Positions 34,482 to 61,671 of a stretch of 64,000 bases of DNA are shown here, piece after piece. A program made the position numbers and the translations under genes. The notes beneath the pieces are model-generated. The model searched no databases. It saw nothing but the letters and a program-made list of their open reading frames with translations, and had not been told where the DNA came from. Origin of the DNA: Notamacropus eugenii (lineage: Eukaryota > Chordata > Mammalia > Diprotodontia > Macropodidae); NCBI RefSeq assembly GCF_028372415.1, contig NC_092875.1:341241123-341305122 (forward strand), read 5' to 3'. The number at the start of each line of letters is the position of its first letter. Positions within the stretch are counted from its first letter, which is position 1.

Positions 34482-36461
34482 GAGAGGAGACATTAAGGGG
34501 AATAGAATATACTAAATTTATACATTCCCTGCTAAGGGAACCTCTTGGTAAGGAAATTCCCTCTGCCAGTACAGACTAGCATTTGTTCTGCAACCTTGAG
34601 CATTAGAGAATTGCCTGTGATATAGAAATGACCAAGTGACTTGTTTAGGGTCATCAGACAATATGTGGTAGAGGTTGGCACTCTACTCACAAAGCCAGGC
34701 TGCCTCTCTATGCAAGATTATATCTTTAAAAAATAATATTCTGAGGGCAGAGCCAAGATGGTAGAGTAGAAGTAGGGACCTGCTTGAGGTATCCCCCCAA
34801 ACTCCTCAAAAAACCTGTAAAAAAATGACTCTAAACAAATTCTGGAGCAGCAGAAGCCACAAAATGACAGACTGAAGCAAATTTCCAGCCCAAGACAATC
34901 TGGAAGGTCAACAGGAAGGATGTATCATAGCAGGATAGGAACAGAGAACAGTTCAATGTGTGAGGCAACGGCACAGATAGAGCTGGAGCAGGCCTTAGAG
35001 GACTGAATCACTGATGGCTGTGGCAGTTTCCAGACTTCTCAACCCACAAAAGCCAAACACAGCTTTGAAGGTCAGTGGGAAGGGTCTCTCACCTGGATGA
35101 GAGGGGAACCTGGTCTGGCCCTAGCCCCAGCCCCAGCCCTCAACCTGGCCCCAGTTCCAGGGCAGTGGCAGCCACTATCGAAGCAGAGGCTGCTTCTGGA
35201 GCCCTACATTTAACAAAGAGCTCAAAAGTTAAGTAATTGGCTGGGGAAATGAGCAAATGGGGGGAAAACAGACTATAGATTCTTACTTGCTCAGTGAAAA
35301 GGCATTTTCTTATGTCACTGATGACAAGGAAGATCAAAACCTACAACCAGAAGAAGACAACAAAGTCAAAGCTTCTGCACCAAAGCCTCCAAAACAGATA
35401 TGAACTTGTCTGAGGCCAAGGAAGAGCTCAAAAAAGGATTTCAAAAATCAAGTAAGAGAAGTAGAGGAAAAATCGGGAAGAGAAATGAGAGTGATACAAG
35501 AAAAATCATGAAAAATTAGTCAACAGCTTGCTAAAGGAGACTCAAAAAAGTGCAGAATTAAAATTAGACTAACCCAAAAGGCAAAAGAGATCCAAAAAGG
35601 CAATGAAGAGAATGCCTTCAAAAGCAGAATGGGCCAAACTGAAAAAGAGGTCCAAAAATTCACTGAATAAAATACTTGCTTAAAAATGAGAATGCAGCAA
35701 ATGGAAACTAATAACTTTATGAGAAATCAAGAAATTACAAAACAAAACCAAAGGAATGAAAAAATAGAAGACTGTGAAGTATCTCACTGGAAAAATAACT
35801 GACCTGGAAAATGGATCCAGGAGAGATAGTTTAAAAATTATTGGTCTACCTAAAAACCATTATCAAAAAAAAGAGCCTAGACATCATCTTTCCAGAAATT
35901 ATCAAGGAAAACTGCCCTGATAGTCTATTACCAGAGGGTAAAATAGAAATGGAAAGAATCCACCAATCATCTCCTGAAAGAGATCCCAAAAGAAAACCTC
36001 CTTGGAATATTGTATCCAAATTCCAGCGTTTCCAGGTCAAGGAGAAAATGTTACAAGCAGGCAGAAACAAATAATTCAAGTATTGTGGAAACACAATCAG
36101 GATAACACAAGATTTAGCAGCTTCTACACTAAGAGATCAGAGGGCTTAGAATATGATATTTCAGAGGTCATAAGAGGTAGGATTAAAACCAGGAATTACT
36201 TACCCAGCAAAACTGAGTATATTACTTCAGGATAAAAAATTTCAATAAAATAGAGGACTTTCAAGCATTCTCGTTGAAAAGATCAGAACTGAATAGAAAA
36301 CTTGATTTTCAAATACAAGAATCAAGAGAAGCATGAAAAAGTAAACAGGAAAGAGAAACCATAAAGGACTTATTAAAGTTGAACTGTTTAAATTACTACA
36401 TGGAAAGATGATATTTGTAACTCATGAGACCTTTCTCAGTAATAGGATAGTTGGAGGGGAT

Positions 36462-36498
36462 ATATATGTGTATGTATGTATATGTGTATATGTGTGTG

Positions 36499-36531
<33 letters not shown>

Positions 36532-36555
36532 ATTTATGTATATGTATATATGGAA
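36462..36555 (+). repeat. (TATG/TG)n microsatellite inside HAL1 3' UTR
   Basis: Alternating tatatgtgtatg and tgtgtg units. The other HAL1 copies have a CA-type repeat at the matching place (41257-41295 and 60870-60910), so the simple repeat seems to derive from the source element. Confidence 0.8.
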
Positions 36556-37139
36556 AAAGAGACAGAGGGCACAGGGTGAGCTGAATATGAAGGGATGGTA
36601 TCTAAAAAATAAAATTAAGTGTTGAGAGGAATGTACTGGGAGAAAGAGAAAGGGAGAGGTAGAATGTAGGAAATCATCTCACATAAGAGGCAAGAGAAAG
36701 CTTTTACAATGGAGGGGGAGAAGGGATAGGCAAGAGGGAATAAGTAAGCCTTACTTTCATTGTTTTGGCTTCAGAAGGAATAGCATACACGCTATTGTGT
36801 ATGGAAGTTTATCTTACCCTACAGGAAAGTAGGGTGGAAGGGAATAAGAGGATAAGGGATAATAGAAGGGATGGCAGTTTGGGGGAAGGGGTAATCAGAA
36901 GCAAACACTTTTGTTGAGGTATAGGTCAACAGAGAGAATAGAAGAAATGGGAGGCAGGACAGGATAGAGGGAAATATAGTTAGTCTTTCACAACATGACT
37001 ATTATGGAAGTGTTCGTCATGACTACACATGTATAATCTTTATCAAATACCTTGCCATCTCAATGAGGGTGGATGGAGAGCAGGGAAGGGAGAGAATGTG
37101 GAACTCAAAGCTTTAAAAATGAATGTTAAAAATTGTTTT

Positions 37140-38128
37140 TTAAATAGTCAAAGGATATGAACAGGCAGTTTTCAGAGGAGGAAATTAAAGCTATCTATAA
37201 TCATATGAAAAAATGCTCTAAATCACTATTGATTAGAGAGATACAAATCAAAACAACTCTGAGGTACCACATCACACCTATCAGATTGGCTAACATGACA
37301 AAACAGGAAGATGATAAATGTTGGAGAAGATGTGGGAGAGTTAGAACACTAATTTATGGTGGAGCTGTGAGCTAAACCAACCATTTTGGAGAGCACTTTG
37401 GAGCTACGCCCAAAGGACAAAAATGTGCATAGCCTTTGACCCAACAATACTGCTTCTAGGACTGTACCCCAAAGAGATCACAAAAATGGGAAAAGGATCC
37501 ACATGTACAAAAATATTTATAGCAGCTCTTTCTGTGGTAGCCAAAAACTGGAAATTGAGGAAATGTCCATCAATTGGGAAATGGCTGAACAAGTTGTGTT
37601 ATATGAATGTAATGGAATACCATTGTGCTATAAGAAATGACCAACAGTTGGACTTCAGAAAAACTTGGAAAGACTTATATGAACTGATGCTGAGTGAAAT
37701 GAGCAGAACCAGGAGAGCATTGTAACATTATAACACTATAGCCACAGAGTGCAAAGACTGTTTCTGATAGACTAAGCCCTTCACAACTATGCAAGGACCT
37801 AGAACATTCCCAAAGGACTCTTGAGGCAAAATGCTATCCACATCCAGAGAAAGAACTATGGAATCAGAATGCAGAATGAAGCAGACTATTTTCTCTTGTG
37901 TTGTGTTTTGTTTTGTTTTGTTTTTTCTTATGGTTTCTCCCATTCGTTTTAATTCTTTAATGCAACATGACTAATGTGAAAATGTGTTTAATAAGAATGT
38001 ATGTGTAGAACCCATTTGAGATTGCATGCCATCTCAGGGAAGGAGGGGAGAGAGAGGGGGAGGAAATTTAAGCTTATGGAAGTGATTGTTGAAAACTGAA
38101 AACAAATAAATTAATTAAATTTTAAAAA
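37140..38128 (+). mobile_element. 5'-truncated L1 (ORF2 end and 3' UTR) nested in HAL1 copy 1
   Basis: It encodes SEEEIKAIYNHMKKC and, in another frame, KIFIAALSVVAKNWKL with MEYHCAIRNDQQLDFRKTW, the C-terminus of marsupial L1 ORF2. The 3' UTR ends with gaaaacaaataaattaatt. Short flanks aaaaattgtttt and aaaaaatttt resemble a target duplication. HAL1 sequence resumes at about 38130. Confidence 0.85.
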
Positions 38129-38594
38129 ATTTTATATGCAACTAGAAAATAAGATGTATAAGCAATGGGGTATAGAAATCTATCTTGCCTACAGGAAAAC
38201 AGAAGGGAAGGGGATGGGGGGGAAGGTGATCAAAGGGAGGGCAAATTGAAGGAAAACTTAATCAGAATACATGCTGTCCTGGGGTGAGGGAAGAGGAGAG
38301 ATGGGGAGAAAATTTGAAATTCAAAATTTTGTGAAAGTGAATGTTGAAAACTGAAAATAAATAAATTTAACTTAAAAAATAATAATATTCTATATTGAGT
38401 ATAGAGACAAGTAATTGAAATTTTATGATAATTGGTTACTCTGTTCCAAACCTGAATCTTCAAAATTGGCCAGGCTTACCGAGACAATGCTGATAACCTG
38501 GGAAGGAATTCCAACCAGCTAGTTTCTATTAAAATGCCATCCTCTTAGCTTGACTTAAAATGTTGACAAGGTAAGGGAAAGGGGGCATAGGATC

Positions 38595-39343: not shown

Positions 39344-39360
39344 AGAATAATAATACTGAG
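39344..39360 (+). repeat. 5' target-site duplication of HAL1 copy 2
   Basis: agaataataatactgag occurs here and again at 42135-42151, directly after the A-tail: 17 of 17 bases match. The upstream ttttaga context suits the L1 endonuclease preference. Confidence 0.9.
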
Positions 39361-40035
39361 GCGGAGCCAAGATGGCGGAGTAGAAAGACGCACATACATA
39401 TAGCTCCGAACCCACAACCCATAGAACGGCTACAGGGAAGTAACTCATGGCGAATTCTGCACCCAGAGACCACGGAACATTGGAGCGAGGGAGATTTCTG
39501 TTCCGGAGAGACCTGCAAACCTCTCGCGGGGGTCCTTCGCGCTGCGGACTGGGCGCAGGGACTGGGAGCTGAGTGCAGCCCTGCCGTGATCGCGGCACCG
39601 AGAGGAAAAGATCCGAGCGGGCTTCAGGGATGGGATCTCCAGCGGTCGCACAAGTCCCTCCACCCACAGGTGGGGGTCAGTGAGAGAGTCTCTTTGGTGG
39701 GTCGAGAGGGGAGTGGGGTGCCCCCATAACTCAGGCCCCCCCGGGAGGTAGAAGCTGAGAGGCGGCTGCAGACCGGGGCTCCCCAAGGGGGCAGGAGCCT
39801 GGATCCATTGTGGAAGGTCTGTGCATAAACCCCCTGAGGGAACTGAGCCTGAGAGGTGGCCCTGCCCCGACCTGACCACCTGAACATAATCTCATACTGA
39901 ATAGCAGCCCTGCCCCCGCCAAAAGCCCTGAGGCTGGAAGCAGCATTTGAATCTCAGACCCCAAGCACTGGCTGGGAGGATCAGGAGGCGAGGTGGGTGT
40001 GAGAATATTCAGAGGTCAAGTCACCGGCTGGGAAA
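39361..40035 (+). promoter_or_regulatory. HAL1 5' UTR, likely internal promoter with YY1-like site
   Basis: ccaagatggcgg at 39367-39378 matches the YY1 core that positions transcription start in L1 5' UTRs. The first 350 bases hold many CpG pairs (for example around 39518-39560 and 39585-39640), unusual for this AT-rich window and unusual for an old repeat, so few CpGs have decayed. Promoter activity is an inference. Confidence 0.65.
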
Positions 40036-41124
40036 ATGCCCAGAAAAGGGAAAAGAAATAAGACTATAGAAGGTTACTTTCTTGGTGAACAGGCATTTCC
40101 TCCCTTCCTTTCTGATGAGGAAGAACAATGCTTACCATCAGGCAAAGACACAGAAATCAAGGCTTCTGTGTCCCAGCCCACCCAATGGGCTCAGGCCATG
40201 GAAGAGCTCAAAAAGAATTCTGAAAATCAAGTTAGAGAGGTAGAGGAAAAGCTGGGAAGAGAAATGAGAGACATGAAGTCAAAGTATGAACAGCAGATCA
40301 GCTCCCTGCTAAAGGAGACCCAAAAAAATGTTGAAGAAAATAACACCTTGAAAACTAGCCTAACTCAATTGGCAAAAGAGGTTCAAAAAGCCAATGAGGA
40401 GAAGAATGCTTTCAAAAGCAGAATTAGCCAAATGGAAAAGGAGATTCAAAAGCTCACTGAAGAAAATAGTTCTTTCAAAATTGGAATGGCACAGATGGAG
40501 GCTAAGGACTTTATGAGAAAGCAAGAAATCATAGAACAAAGCGAGAAGAATGGAAAAATGGAAGATAATGTGAAATATCTCATTGGAAAAACAACTGACC
40601 TGGAAAATAGATCCAGGAGAGACAATTTAAAAATTATGGGACTACCTGAAAGCCATGATCAAAAGAAGAGCCTAGACATCATCTTTCATGAAATTATCAA
40701 GGAAAACTGCCCTGAGATTCTAGAACCAGAGGGCAAAATAAATATTCAAGGAATCCACAGAACACTGCATGAAAGAGATCCAAAAAGAGAAACTCCTAGG
40801 AACATTGTGACCAAATTCCAGAGTTCCCTAGTCAAGGAGAAAATATTGCAAGCAGCTAGAAAGAAACAATTCAAGTATTGTGGAAATACAATCAGGATAA
40901 CACAAGATCTAGCAGCCTCTACATTAAGGGATCGAAGGGCATGGAATAGGATATTCCAGAAGTCAAAGGAACTAGGACTAAAACCAAGAATCACCTACCC
41001 AGCAAAACTGAGTATAATACTTCAGGGGAAAAATTGGTCTTTCAATGAAATAGAGGATTTTCAAGCATTCTTGATGAAAAGACCAGAGCTGAAAAGAAAA
41101 TTTGACTTTCAAACACAAGAATGA
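40036..41124 (+). CDS. HAL1/L1 ORF1 protein (RNA-binding chaperone), intact
   Basis: 362 codons from ATG to TGA with no break. The N-terminus is basic (MPRKGKRNKTIEGYF). Roughly residues 60-190 form a coiled coil with heptads such as EELKKNSENQVREVEEKL and LLKETQKNVEENNTLKTSL. The RRM starts near residue 194 with LENRSRRDNLKIMGLPE, equal in place to the RNP motif of L1 ORF1p. The C-terminal domain has RAWNRIFQKSKELGLKPR and YPAKLSIILQG (YPAKLS at 321-326), residues needed for nucleic-acid binding in known ORF1 proteins. ORF1p trimers coat the element RNA in the cytoplasm. Length is close to that of other L1 ORF1 proteins. The start is chosen because it follows the 5' UTR directly and fits the two related copies. 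Confidence 0.95.
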   Translation: MPRKGKRNKTIEGYFLGEQAFPPFLSDEEEQCLPSGKDTEIKASVSQPTQWAQAMEELKKNSENQVREVEEKLGREMRDMKSKYEQQISSLLKETQKNVEENNTLKTSLTQLAKEVQKANEEKNAFKSRISQMEKEIQKLTEENSSFKIGMAQMEAKDFMRKQEIIEQSEKNGKMEDNVKYLIGKTTDLENRSRRDNLKIMGLPESHDQKKSLDIIFHEIIKENCPEILEPEGKINIQGIHRTLHERDPKRETPRNIVTKFQSSLVKEKILQAARKKQFKYCGNTIRITQDLAASTLRDRRAWNRIFQKSKELGLKPRITYPAKLSIILQGKNWSFNEIEDFQAFLMKRPELKRKFDFQTQE

Positions 41125-42134
41125 AGAGAACCATGAAAAGGTGAACAGCAAAGAGAAGTCATAAGGGACTTACTAAAGTTGAACTGTTTACATTCCTACA
41201 TGGAAAGACAATATTTGTAACTCTTGAAACATTTCAGTATCTGGGTATTGGGTGGGATTACACACATACACATGCACACACGCACACATACATAGAGACA
41301 GAGTGCACAGAGTGAATTGAAGAGGATGGGATCATATCTTAAAAAAAAAAAATGAAATCAAGCAGTGAGAGAGAAATATATTGGGAGGAGAAAGGGAGAA
41401 ATTGAATGCGGCAAATTCTCTCTCATGAAAGAGGCAAGCAAAAGACTCATTAGTGGAGGGATAAAGAGGGGAGGTGAGAGAAAAACATGAAGTCTACTCT
41501 CACCACATTCCACTAAAGGAAGGAATAAAATGCACACTCATTTTGGTATGAAAACCTATCTCACAATACAGGAAAGTGGGGGATAAGGGGACAAGCAGGG
41601 TGGGGGGGATGATAGAAGGGAGGGCATGGGGAGGAGAGTGCAATTCGAGGTCGACACTCATGGGGAGGGATAGGATCAAAAGAGAATAGAAGTAATGGGG
41701 GACAGGATAGGATGGAGGGAAATATAGTCAGTCCTATACAACACAACTATTATGGAAGTCATCTGCAAAACTACACAGATTTGGCCTATATTGAATTGCT
41801 TACCTTCCAAAGGGAAGGGGTGGAGAGGGAGGGAGGTAAAGAAGTTGGAACTCAAAGTGTTAGGATCAACTGTCGAGTAATGTTCTTGCCACTAGGAAAT
41901 AAGAAATACAGGTAAAGGGGTATAGAAAGCTATCTGGCCCTACAGGACAAAAGAGAAGACGGAGACAAGGGCAGGGAGGGATGATAGAAGAGAGAGCAGA
42001 TTGGTCATAGGGGCAATTAGAATGCTTGGTGTTTGCGGGGGGAGGGGAGAAAAGGGGAGAAAAATTTGTAACCCAAAATTTTGTGAAAATGAATGTTAAA
42101 AGTTAAATAAATAAATTTAATTTAAAAAAAAAAA

Positions 42135-42151
42135 AGAATAATAATACTGAG
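42135..42151 (+). repeat. 3' target-site duplication of HAL1 copy 2
   Basis: Perfect partner of 39344-39360, immediately after the A-run. Confidence 0.9.
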
Positions 42152-44512: not shown

Positions 44513-44924
44513 AGTTTTTATTCCTCACTAAATGATTCTCTGTCTCACTCCTTACAGAACTTATTTCAAACCTTTCGGAGTCTGCTATAAATTCCTCCTC
44601 TCTCTCTCACTCAGTTGAAGACCTTGTCTCTTACTTTAATGAGATAAATGAGATTATTCCTTGTGAACTCTCCCATCTCCCATTCTCTTCATCTGACAAC
44701 TGCCTGACACCATCTCTTGTCCCGTAGACACTGATAATGAACTAGCTCTTTTCCTTCCCAAGGCTAGCCTCTCTACATGTGCACTTGATATCATCTCCTC
44801 TCATCTTCTTCAAAACTCCCCATCCTTAAAAAAAATTCCTGTGTCCTACCATCCCCATGAAGCTCTCATTTTTTATCTCCCTTCCCTTTCTCAATCAAAA
44901 TTCTTTAAAAAAATTTGCCTTTCC

Positions 44925-45448
44925 AGGGCATGAGGAGGAGAGTGCAATTCGAGGTCGACACTCATGGGGAGGGATAGGATCAAAAGAGAATAGAAGTAAT
45001 GGGGGACAGGATAGGATGGAGGGAAATATAGTTAGTCCTATACAACACAACTATTATGGAAGTCATTTGCAAAACTACACAGATATGGCCTATATTGAAT
45101 TGCTTGCCTTCCAAAGGGAAGGGGTGGGGAGGGAGGGAGGAAGAGAAGTTGGAACTCAAAGTGTTAGGATCAACTGTCGAGTAATGTGCTTGCCACTAGG
45201 AAATAAGAAAAACAGGTAAAGGGGTATAGAAAGCTATCTGCCCCTACAGGACAAAAGAGAAGATGGAGACAAGGGCAGAGAGAGATGATAGAAGAGAGAG
45301 CAGATTGGTCATAGGGGCAATTAGAATGCTTGGTGTTTGGGGGGGGAGGGGATAAAAGGGGAGAAAATTTGTAACCCAAAATTTTGTGAAAATGAATGTT
45401 AAAAGTTAAATAAATAAATTTAATAATAAAAAAAAAAAAAAAAAGAAA
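44925..45448 (+). mobile_element. 5'-truncated HAL1 3' UTR with 18-base target duplications
   Basis: Nearly the same as 41625-42134: I count about 17 differences in about 500 bases. aaaaaaatttgcctttcc at 44907-44924 recurs at 45449-45466. It inserted into the old L2 described above. It has no coding part; open frames in it are chance. Confidence 0.92.
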
Positions 45449-45739
45449 AAAAAAATTTGCCTTTCCTGATCTCCTCACTGTTAATGCCCACCACCCTTAA
45501 CTGCCTTATACTTATCTACTTTATATTTATGCTATATATAATTATATATGTATTTGTTCCCCATTAGAATCTACATTCCTTGTGAGTAGTTTGTTTTGCT
45601 CTTTGAACTTTGCATCCCTAGCACCTAGCACTCTGCCTGATATAAGCAAGTACTTAATAAATGCATGTTGATTGGTTAAAGATTAAAAAATCATATCCAA
45701 TGCTATCAATTACAAAAATTTCCTTTATCGTATCCCCAG

Positions 45740-59150: not shown

Positions 59151-60867
59151 TATTTGAGGAGGGAATTGAAAGTTCCTTTAATTTCTAAAAGCATGATCCT
59201 ATGGGCAGAACCAAGATGGCGGAGTAGAAAAAAGCATTGACTCTACTGCTTCCCCCACAGCCCACAAAATACCTGTAAAAAATGACTCTCAACAAAGTCT
59301 AGAGCAGTAGAAGCCATAGGACAACAGAGCAAAAGAGATTTCCAGCCAAAGGTAACCTGGAAGGTCGACAAGAAAGGTCTACCTCACAGGACCCTGAGCT
59401 GAGTGGAGCCCAGCCCTGGCCATGAGGCATGGGGAAGAACAGGACCAGAATAGGCTTCCAGGGCAGAATCCTAGCAGGGAGGGTCCCAGATATCTCAACC
59501 CACAAGTGACAAAGAAAGCTCCAAAGGTCAGTGTGGGAGGGCTTTACCAGCTGGGCCAGAGGGGAAGGGATTCCTCCACCAATAGCCCCAGGCAACAGTG
59601 GAGGCAGTGGCAGCAGACTGCAGGCAGCTACGGTGGCAGGAAGCAACCTGGGTCCATTGTCCAGGTAGCTCAGCTTAAAGCCTCTGGCAATAGGGAGCAG
59701 CTGATTTAAATCCTAGCCCTGAGTGACAGCCCTACCCCTTCCCAAAGCCCTGGGAAACAGAGCAGCTGAATCTAATCTCTTGACAAAGGATTCAGAAGTC
59801 AAGTAACTAGCTGGGAAAATGCCCAAAAAAGGGGAAAAAAATAAGACCATAGACCAAGAAGACCAAAATAAGACTTTCTTGGTGAACAGGTGTCTCTTCC
59901 CATCCTTTCAGATGAGGAAGAACAAGGTTTACTGTCACAAGAAGTTAAGACCTCTGCCTCCAAAGTGAACTTAAATTGGGCTCAGGCAACAGAAGAGCTC
60001 GAAAAGCCAATGAGGAGAAGGAAGCATTAAAAAGCAGAATCAGCCAAATGGAGGAGAAGGTTCAAAAGCTCACTGAACTCTGAAAGAGAGAATTGAGTTC
60101 AAGGAAATGAATGACTATGAGATAAACCAAGGAGTTAAAAAACAAAACCAAAAGTTTGAAAAAATAGAAGATAATGTGAAACATCTCATTGGAAAAAAAA
60201 GTGACCTGAAAAATAGATCCAGGAGACAAAATTTAAAAATTATGGGATTACCTGAAAGCCATGATCAAAAAAAGCCTAGAAATTATCTTCCATGAAATTA
60301 TCAAGGAAAACTGCCCTGATATTCTAGAACCAGAGGGTAAGATAAATATTGAAAGAATCCACTGATCACCTCCTGAAAGAGACTTGAAAAGAGAAACTCC
60401 TAGGAATATTGTGGCCAAATTTCAGAGTTCCCAGGTCAAGGAGAAAATACTGCAAGCAGCTAGAAAGAAACAATTCGAGTACTGTGGAAATACAATCAGG
60501 ATAACACAGGATCTGGCAGCTTCTACATTAAGGGATCAAAGGGCTTGGAATAGGATATTCCAGAAGTCAAAGGAATTGGGATTAAAACCAAGAATCACCT
60601 ACCCAGAAAAACTGAATATAATACTTCAAGGGAATAAATGGTCATTCAATGATAAAGAGGACTTTCAAGCATTCATGATGAAAAGACCAGAACTGAAGAG
60701 AAAATTTGACTTTCAAACACAAGACTCAAGAGAAGCATGAAAAGGTAAACAGAAAAGAAAAATCATAAAAGACTTTCTAAAGCTGAACTGTTTACATTCC
60801 TACATGGAAAGAAAATATTTATAACTCTTGAGGCTTTTCTCAGTATTTGGGTAGGTGGAGGGATTGT

Positions 60868-60869
<2 letters not shown>

Positions 60870-60910
<41 letters not shown>
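60870..60910 (+). repeat. (CA)n microsatellite in HAL1 3' UTR
   Basis: About 20 CA units at the same place as the CA- or TG-type repeats of the other HAL1 copies. Confidence 0.9.
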
Positions 60911-60920
<10 letters not shown>

Positions 60921-61671
60921 GTACAGGCTACATTGAATCAGAAGAGATGATATCCACAAAAAAATAAAATAAAAATTAAGGGATGAGGGAGGAAAATACT
61001 GGGAAGAGAAAGGGAGAATTGGAATAGGGAAGGCTATAACTCATAAAAGAGATAAAGAAAAATCTTGTTCAATGGAGGAGAAAAGGGAGAAGGGGAGAGG
61101 GGAAAAGTGAAGCTACTCTCTCCACATATAGCTTAAGGAGGGAATAACATGCTCACTAAATTTGGTATGAAAATCTATCTTATACTACAGGAAAGTAGAG
61201 GAGGAGGTGGCAAGTGGGGTGAGGGGAATGATAGAAAGGAGGGCAAATGGGAGAAGGGAGTAACTAGAAATAAACACTTTTGGGAAAGGACAAGGTATAA
61301 GGGGGGAAAGAGTAGGACAGAGGGCAATATAGTTAGTATTACACAACATGATTATTATGGAAGTCTTTTGCAAAATGACACATATATAGCCTGTATTGAA
61401 TTGCCTGCCTTCTCAGTGGGGATGCGTAGACAAGGAGGGAGGGAGGGAATGAATTTGGAATTCAAAGTATTAGAAATTAATGTTGAGAATTACTATTGCA
61501 TATAACTGGGAATGGGGTATAGAAATTTATCTTGCCCTACAAGAAAAGAGAGAAGATGGGCATAAGGGAAGGGTGGGGTGTGATAGGAGGGAGGGCTCAT
61601 TGAGGAAAAAGATAATCAGAATGCAAGGTATTAAGGGGTGGGGGAGGGGAGAGATGGGGAGAAAAATTGGA

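What the first reader, a model, noticed from the sequence alone, without database searches (positions are those of the whole stretch)
39344..42151. Full-length HAL1 with intact ORF1 and perfect target duplications
Seen directly: a 362-codon open ORF1, L1-type 5' end, A-tail and 17/17 matching flanks, with no ORF2. Known: HAL1 elements are ORF1-only L1 derivatives. Inference: an intact ORF1 in a non-autonomous element suggests recent insertion and perhaps that ORF1 protein is useful in cis to the element RNA.
Basis: partly seen in the sequence, partly recalled or inferred. Interest (0 to 1): 0.75.

Follow-up and report, generated by a model that had tools for sequence, protein, structure and literature searches.

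The report
Recent half-L1 jumping gene, selected ORF1
This is a young copy of a "half-L1" jumping gene that has lost its copying enzyme but still carries an intact RNA-binding protein gene; related copies in this genome show signs that selection has kept that protein working, so these parasites seem to need their own version of it while presumably borrowing the enzyme from active L1 elements.

Summary
Confirmed. Window 39344-42151 is a full-length HAL1-type (half-L1) insertion: L1-like 5' tip, 362-aa ORF1p, no ORF2, A-tail, 17/17 target duplications. It belongs to a large, recently amplified family. All 40 scored DNA matches (itself included) run from ORF1 into the same ORF2-less 3'UTR, and 29 of those 40 have an intact ORF1. 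A younger sister subfamily is intact in 20 of 20 fetched copies. No ORF2-bearing source was seen; old subfamilies already show the ORF1-only layout.

Changes private to single copies look neutral (omega 0.83-1.13). Differences between HAL1 subfamilies do not (0.14-0.53), most clearly in the RNA-binding domains. So ORF1 was under purifying selection in the source lineages; this copy's intactness needs only youth. L1s with open ORF1 and ORF2 exist in the same genome and could supply ORF2p. Part of the HAL1 3'UTR is homologous to this L1's 565-bp inter-ORF spacer. ORF1 retention in HAL1 is already in print for guinea pig (quoted in PMC3627910), so this is a new member of a known kind. Cis action of ORF1p is inferred, not shown.

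The parts
39344..39360 (.). 5' target-site duplication, 17 bases; its last G may belong to the element
   Evidence: TTTT/AGAA context as expected of L1 endonuclease (motif recalled)
39361..40035 (+). 5' UTR / promoter region; the first ~25 bases (with AAGATGGC, YY1-like by recall) resemble L1, the rest is not detectably related to the L1 5'UTR; element positions 163-326 (window 39506-39669) are present twice in many relatives but once here
40036..41124 (+). ORF1, 362 aa: N-terminus, coiled coil, RRM (Transposase_22, aa 195-291), CTD (Tnp_22_dsRBD, aa 294-354)
41125..41170 (+). start of the 3' UTR; the element-to-L1 blastn match through ORF1 ends at 41148
41171..41737 (+). 3' UTR part homologous and collinear to the 565-bp L1 inter-ORF spacer
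   Evidence: SW 174 against shuffled 49.5 +- 8.9, 0 of 200 reach; controls
41738..42123 (+). distal 3' UTR; contains a partial repeat (41545-41626 again at 41919-41998) and a weakly L1-like 3' terminus
42124..42134 (+). A-run (tail)
42135..42151 (.). 3' target-site duplication, 17 bases
44925..45442 (+). second young copy of the same family, 5'-truncated (element 2278-2795, 96% identical), with an 18-base TSD 44907-44924 / 45449-45466
34732..38385 (+). old HAL1 copy (B), ORF1 broken, ~11-base TSD, interrupted by an L1 3' fragment at about 37131-38135
59204..61668 (+). old HAL1 copy (D), ORF1 broken, part of the coiled-coil region missing, different 3' tail, no TSD found

Best explanation
A recent insertion of a HAL1 (half-L1) non-LTR retrotransposon. 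Shown: an L1-like 5' tip, L1-type ORF1p, a 3'UTR partly homologous to the L1 inter-ORF spacer, an A-tail and target duplications. Shown: the ORF1-only layout is found in young and old subfamilies, and ORF1 differences between subfamilies carry a signature of purifying selection. Inferred: RNA from a full-length copy is translated into ORF1p, which preferentially binds that same RNA (cis) and packs and chaperones it. ORF2p (endonuclease/RT) comes in trans from the active L1 and performs target-primed reverse transcription. A copy whose ORF1p fails leaves few descendants, which explains neutral private changes but constrained differences between subfamilies.
For: Anatomy. Family: 40 of 40 scored matches and 40 of 40 in the younger-copy search have the same layout past ORF1. 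Target duplications of at least 9 bases at 28 of 36 loci, of at least 12 at 20 of 36 (no shuffle control). ORF1 intact in 29 of 40 (A group with this copy) and 20 of 20 fetched (Y), but 0 of 21 (B) and 0 of 16 (D). Selection: private omega Y 0.83, A 0.84, D 0.97, B 1.13; between subfamilies A-Y 0.14 (9 S: 4 N, p 0.0024), A-B 0.50 (p 0.0024), Y-B 0.45 (p 0.00014), D-B 0.41 (p 0.00016), A-D 0.53 (p 0.027), Y-D 0.49 (p 0.0084); to L1 0.31-0.42. Shifted frames give 0.84-3.22 in the 7 comparisons tried; RRM omega is 0.12-0.27. ORF2 source: 6 of 150 rows have a 1298-aa ORF2 frame; two of these read in full have open ORF1 and ORF2 (ORF2 domains of one); 40 of 40 scored matches to one ORF2 piece round to 100% over 1250 bases.
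Against: Cis action and trans-use of ORF2p were not tested. At a stricter cut-off A-D (p 0.2) and Y-D (p 0.072) lose significance. Copies are the best hits per search, not a random sample, and only part was fetched for Y (20 of 39), B (20 of 39) and D (15 of 39). Allele classes within A alone were inconclusive (omega 0.57 for alleles in 3 or more copies, p 0.07; private against shared p 0.24). Stops among private changes of Y and A are fewer than expected (0, and 9 at a stop/S of 0.12 against 0.21), so those private changes may not be fully neutral. The D copies share a foreign 3' tail and may be carried inside another repeat. An extinct ORF2-bearing L1 with HAL1-like ORF1 could have carried part of the constraint.
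Confidence: 0.85

Rival explanations
1. HAL1 ORF1 is passively inherited: HAL1s are regenerated again and again from autonomous L1s by deletion or template switching, so the constraint on ORF1 arose in L1 and HAL1 itself has none.
For: HAL1s are reported to have arisen several times in mammals (PMC5753468 passage). HAL1 and L1 share a spacer and similar termini.
Against: HAL1 ORF1 groups differ from each other (A-B 17.5%, B-D 18.1%) less than from the L1 ORF1 (25-27% in aligned parts). The HAL1 3'UTR follows ORF1 in both old window copies and in 5 of 6 fetched old copies, with ORF2 similarity only in a later L1 insertion in copy B. The recent A-Y step (9 S: 4 N) lies between two ORF1-only subfamilies.
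Confidence: 0.1
2. Intact ORF1 reflects youth only; HAL1 is mobilised wholly in trans like a SINE and its ORF1 is neutral.
For: 28 of 39 scored relatives are intact, changes private to single copies are near neutral, and allele classes within the A group were inconclusive.
Against: Between-subfamily omega of 0.14-0.53, with private changes and shifted frames as controls.
Confidence: 0.05
3. A private or young deletion derivative of the current L1 family.
For: Same layout minus ORF2, with homologous spacer.
Against: ORF1p is only 62% identical to L1 ORF1p over 280 aa with no BLASTP match in the first 81, the rest of the 5'UTR is not detectably related, and dozens of relatives share the layout.
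Confidence: 0.01

Closest known systems
HAL1 (half-L1) elements of mammals (Smit 1999; Bao & Jurka 2010, neither read; seen through citing passages in PMC5753468 and PMC3627910)
   Same: ORF1-only L1 derivatives; long retention of ORF1 coding capacity reported for guinea pig (29-44 Myr, quoted in PMC3627910)
   Different: Here a genome taken to be marsupial, with very young subfamilies; a test of private against between-subfamily changes; 3'UTR traced in part to a 565-bp L1 inter-ORF spacer
Autonomous L1 of the same genome (L074, L075)
   Same: Similar 5' tip, ORF1 RRM and CTD, spacer; L1-like 3' end (clear for old copy B, weak for this copy)
   Different: Has ORF2 with endonuclease and RT domains (L074); ORF1 N-terminus and most of the 5'UTR differ
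SINEs mobilised by L1 (e.g. Alu; recalled)
   Same: Presumed dependence on L1 ORF2p in trans
   Different: SINEs encode no protein; HAL1 keeps a selected ORF1

Membership tests
HAL1 | Encodes L1-type ORF1p | tested here: met
HAL1 | Lacks ORF2 as a family trait | tested here: met
HAL1 | L1-like 5' tip, A-tail and target-site duplications | tested here: met
HAL1 | Multi-copy family derived from L1 | tested here: met
   spacer homology
HAL1 | Mobilised by L1 ORF2p in trans | not testable with these tools
   only consistent evidence: young L1s with open ORF2 in the same genome
HAL1 | Match to a named Repbase/Dfam HAL1 consensus | not testable with these tools
   no repeat library available
Autonomous L1 | ORF2 with endonuclease and RT | tested here: not met
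   best tblastn E 0.45

The most novel reading that the evidence does not exclude
HAL1 in this lineage is a long-lived semi-autonomous parasite that has evolved its own ORF1p assembly specificity. In the older HAL1 comparisons the coiled coil changes faster (omega 0.50-1.23) than the RRM (0.12-0.27), the N-terminus shows 12 N: 1 S between A and B, and the first 81 residues have no BLASTP match to L1 ORF1p. HAL1 ORF1p trimers might therefore not mix with L1 ORF1p, which would enforce strict cis packaging while ORF2p is taken from L1. Against it: coiled-coil omega is only 0.42-0.44 against L1 and 0.19 for A-Y, and the N-terminal count rests on 26 codons beside an insertion in B.
Probability: 0.2. 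Interest if true: 0.65.

Novelty: new member of a known kind. Interest (0 to 1): 0.42.

Why it matters
Whether L1 ORF1p must act in cis on its own RNA is hard to test with autonomous L1s, where ORF1 and ORF2 are linked. A HAL1 family separates them: ORF2 is gone, yet ORF1 is conserved between subfamilies while single copies decay about neutrally. That makes the family a natural experiment for the cis requirement of ORF1p, and one with very young copies adds to the guinea pig case already in print.

Tried and rejected
Private deletion of an L1: rejected. The apparent stop of many matches at element 2458 looked like a different 3' end; for L012, the one such copy held with flanks, the alignment runs on to 2789 when redone, so it is taken as an alignment break. 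HAL1 distal 3'UTR against the modern L1 3'UTR or spacer: no clear signal (43 and 21 of 200 shuffles reach it, 12 of 200 for L075), against the 3'UTR of the older L1 in copy B 1 of 200. The tail of this copy against L1 tails is weak (2 and 15 of 200; 1 of 500). Within-group allele classes alone were inconclusive. A three-way codon count of A, B and D pointed the same way but was too small (A branch 11 N: 10 S, B branch 40: 18, D branch 20: 13). A first count on a mixed set (shared 20 N: 22 S) was dropped because L010-L038 were ranked by protein similarity; of these only L012 (also a DNA hit) and L016 (the DNA query of the Y group) stay in the tests. In one search eight copies were compared; L034 (about 95.5-95.8%, different 5' part) is not in the range quoted. 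ORF2-like fragments occur in 13 of 38 loci (L001-L038), all outside the element, never between ORF1 and its 3' end. Searches for a marsupial HAL1 report: no listed title or abstract start reports one. Listed papers PMC5322556, PMC7586669 and PMC6501411 hold the words but were not opened, and Bao & Jurka 2010 is not held, so prior description cannot be excluded. Structure prediction was not run.

Full report
Observation. The element is as described: 17/17 target duplications at 39344-39360 and 42135-42151, ORF1 40036-41124 of 362 aa with both L1 ORF1p domains and a clear match to solved human ORF1p, an A-run at 42124-42134, and no ORF2. Three other HAL1 copies lie in the window: old copies B (34732-38385) and D (59204-61668), and a second young, 5'-truncated copy C (44925-45442, 96% identical) with an 18-base TSD.

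Family. The window lies in a 3.445-Gb assembly. A DNA search with the element had 12,925 first-look candidates, of which 40 were scored, this copy included; all 40 run at least 561 bases past ORF1 into the same 3'UTR. Of these 40, 29 have an intact ORF1. A protein search scored 113 of 301,303 candidates; 112 have no stop inside the match. The 28 fetched protein-search copies other than this one and one duplicate differ from this copy by 19-24 of 1089 bases and from each other by a median of 6 (0-29); L015, L019 and L020 are identical in ORF1 at three different places. L015 and L019-L022 are 99.0-99.7% identical over the whole element with different flanks. A DNA search with one of these (L016) scored 40 of 7,417 candidates, L016 included; the other 39 are 98-99% identical and near full length. 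Of these 39, 20 were fetched, and all 20 have an intact ORF1. This copy has 4 private ORF1 changes against 35 others (3 N, 1 S) and a terminal branch of 0.67%, roughly 2-3 million years at a recalled mammalian rate. TSDs of 9 or more bases were found at 28 of 36 loci, 8 bases at one, none at 7 (no shuffle control).

Selection. Four groups were compared: Y (21 copies), A (40), D (16), B (21), plus two L1 ORF1s. Groups B and D are the window copies plus 20 of 39 and 15 of 39 other scored matches. Old groups are all broken (0 of 21 B, 0 of 16 D). Private changes inside groups are near neutral: S/N/stop 15/40/0, 74/200/9, 69/217/20 and 106/401/30 for Y, A, D and B, omega 0.83, 0.84, 0.97 and 1.13; stops are below expectation in Y and A, at or above it in D and B. 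Differences between groups are constrained: A-Y 0.14, A-B 0.50, Y-B 0.45, D-B 0.41, A-D 0.53, Y-D 0.49; to L1 0.31-0.42. With a stricter frequency of 0.7 the HAL1 values are 0.04-0.63; A-D (p 0.2) and Y-D (p 0.072) lose significance and the others hold (A-Y p 0.00025, A-B 0.01, Y-B 0.0011, D-B 0.032). In shifted frames omega is 0.84-3.22 (7 of the 10 comparisons). By domain, in the older comparisons within HAL1, RRM 0.12-0.27 and CTD 0.17-0.47 are constrained; coiled coil 0.50-1.23 and N-terminus (A-B 12 N: 1 S, 26 codons) are less or not so; against L1 the coiled coil is 0.42-0.44, and for A-Y 0.19 on 5 changes. Tests share groups and are not independent. Allele classes within the A group alone did not reach significance.

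Layout and origin. Flanks of about 1 kb after ORF1 were fetched for 3 B-type and 3 D-type copies. Both window copies and 5 of these 6 carry the HAL1 3'UTR; L134 matches for about 200 bases and then diverges; ORF2 similarity appears only in B, from a later L1 insertion. Two L1s of this genome have open ORF1 and ORF2 frames and a 565-bp spacer between them (domains of one). HAL1 element positions 1828-2394 align collinearly to that spacer (SW 174 against shuffled 49.5 +- 8.9, 0 of 200); so do the 3'UTRs of B and D (0 of 200 each), while the reversed and reverse-complemented controls do not stand out (15 and 14 of 200). The B tail matches the tail of the L1 inserted in it (71 against 20 +- 3.5, 0 of 500); this copy's own tail does so weakly (1 of 500). 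The simplest reading is that HAL1 arose from an L1 by loss of ORF2 between the spacer and the 3' end, before the present subfamilies (inference).

Mechanism. Shown: a signature of selection on ORF1 without ORF2, and L1s with open ORF2 in the same genome (6 of 150 rows have a 1298-aa frame; 40 of 40 scored matches round to 100% over 1250 bases). Inferred: ORF1p acts on its own RNA in cis and ORF2p is supplied in trans by L1.

Literature. PMC3627910 (passages) states that guinea pig HAL1 kept ORF1 coding capacity about 29-44 Myr and draws the same conclusion, cis ORF1p and trans ORF2p. PMC5753468 (passages) defines HAL1 and its repeated origins. A 2011 table (PMC3183009, passages) lists no HAL1 among families under 1% divergence in opossum or wallaby, but does in guinea pig and marmoset. 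A review reports HAL1 activity in rat (PMC8535693, passage). So the idea is known; this adds a young family with a direct test.

Noticed in passing
window 61666 onward; L135, L136: Three D-type HAL1 copies (window D, L135, L136) share a 3' tail unlike that of A and B, either a chimeric 3' end or a HAL1 carried inside another repeat; no TSD was found for window D.
   Followed up: partly
element positions 163-326 (window 39506-39669); relatives: A ~164-bp 5'UTR unit is present twice in many relatives (19 of 40 with an almost complete extra 5' piece, more with partial ones) but once in this copy, reminiscent of mouse L1 monomers (recalled).
   Followed up: partly
L074:2686-3250; L075:2485-3049: Two L1s of this genome have an inter-ORF spacer of 565 bp, far longer than the few dozen bases recalled for human and mouse L1.
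   Followed up: partly
window 41545-41626 and 41919-41998: Partial repeat in the HAL1 3'UTR (72%); by eye, B-type copies show an L1-like 3' end between the two units, suggesting a duplicated 3' end.
   Followed up: partly
window 37131-38135: 5'-truncated L1 3' fragment inserted in HAL1 copy B; only an 8-base flank repeat was found.
   Followed up: yes
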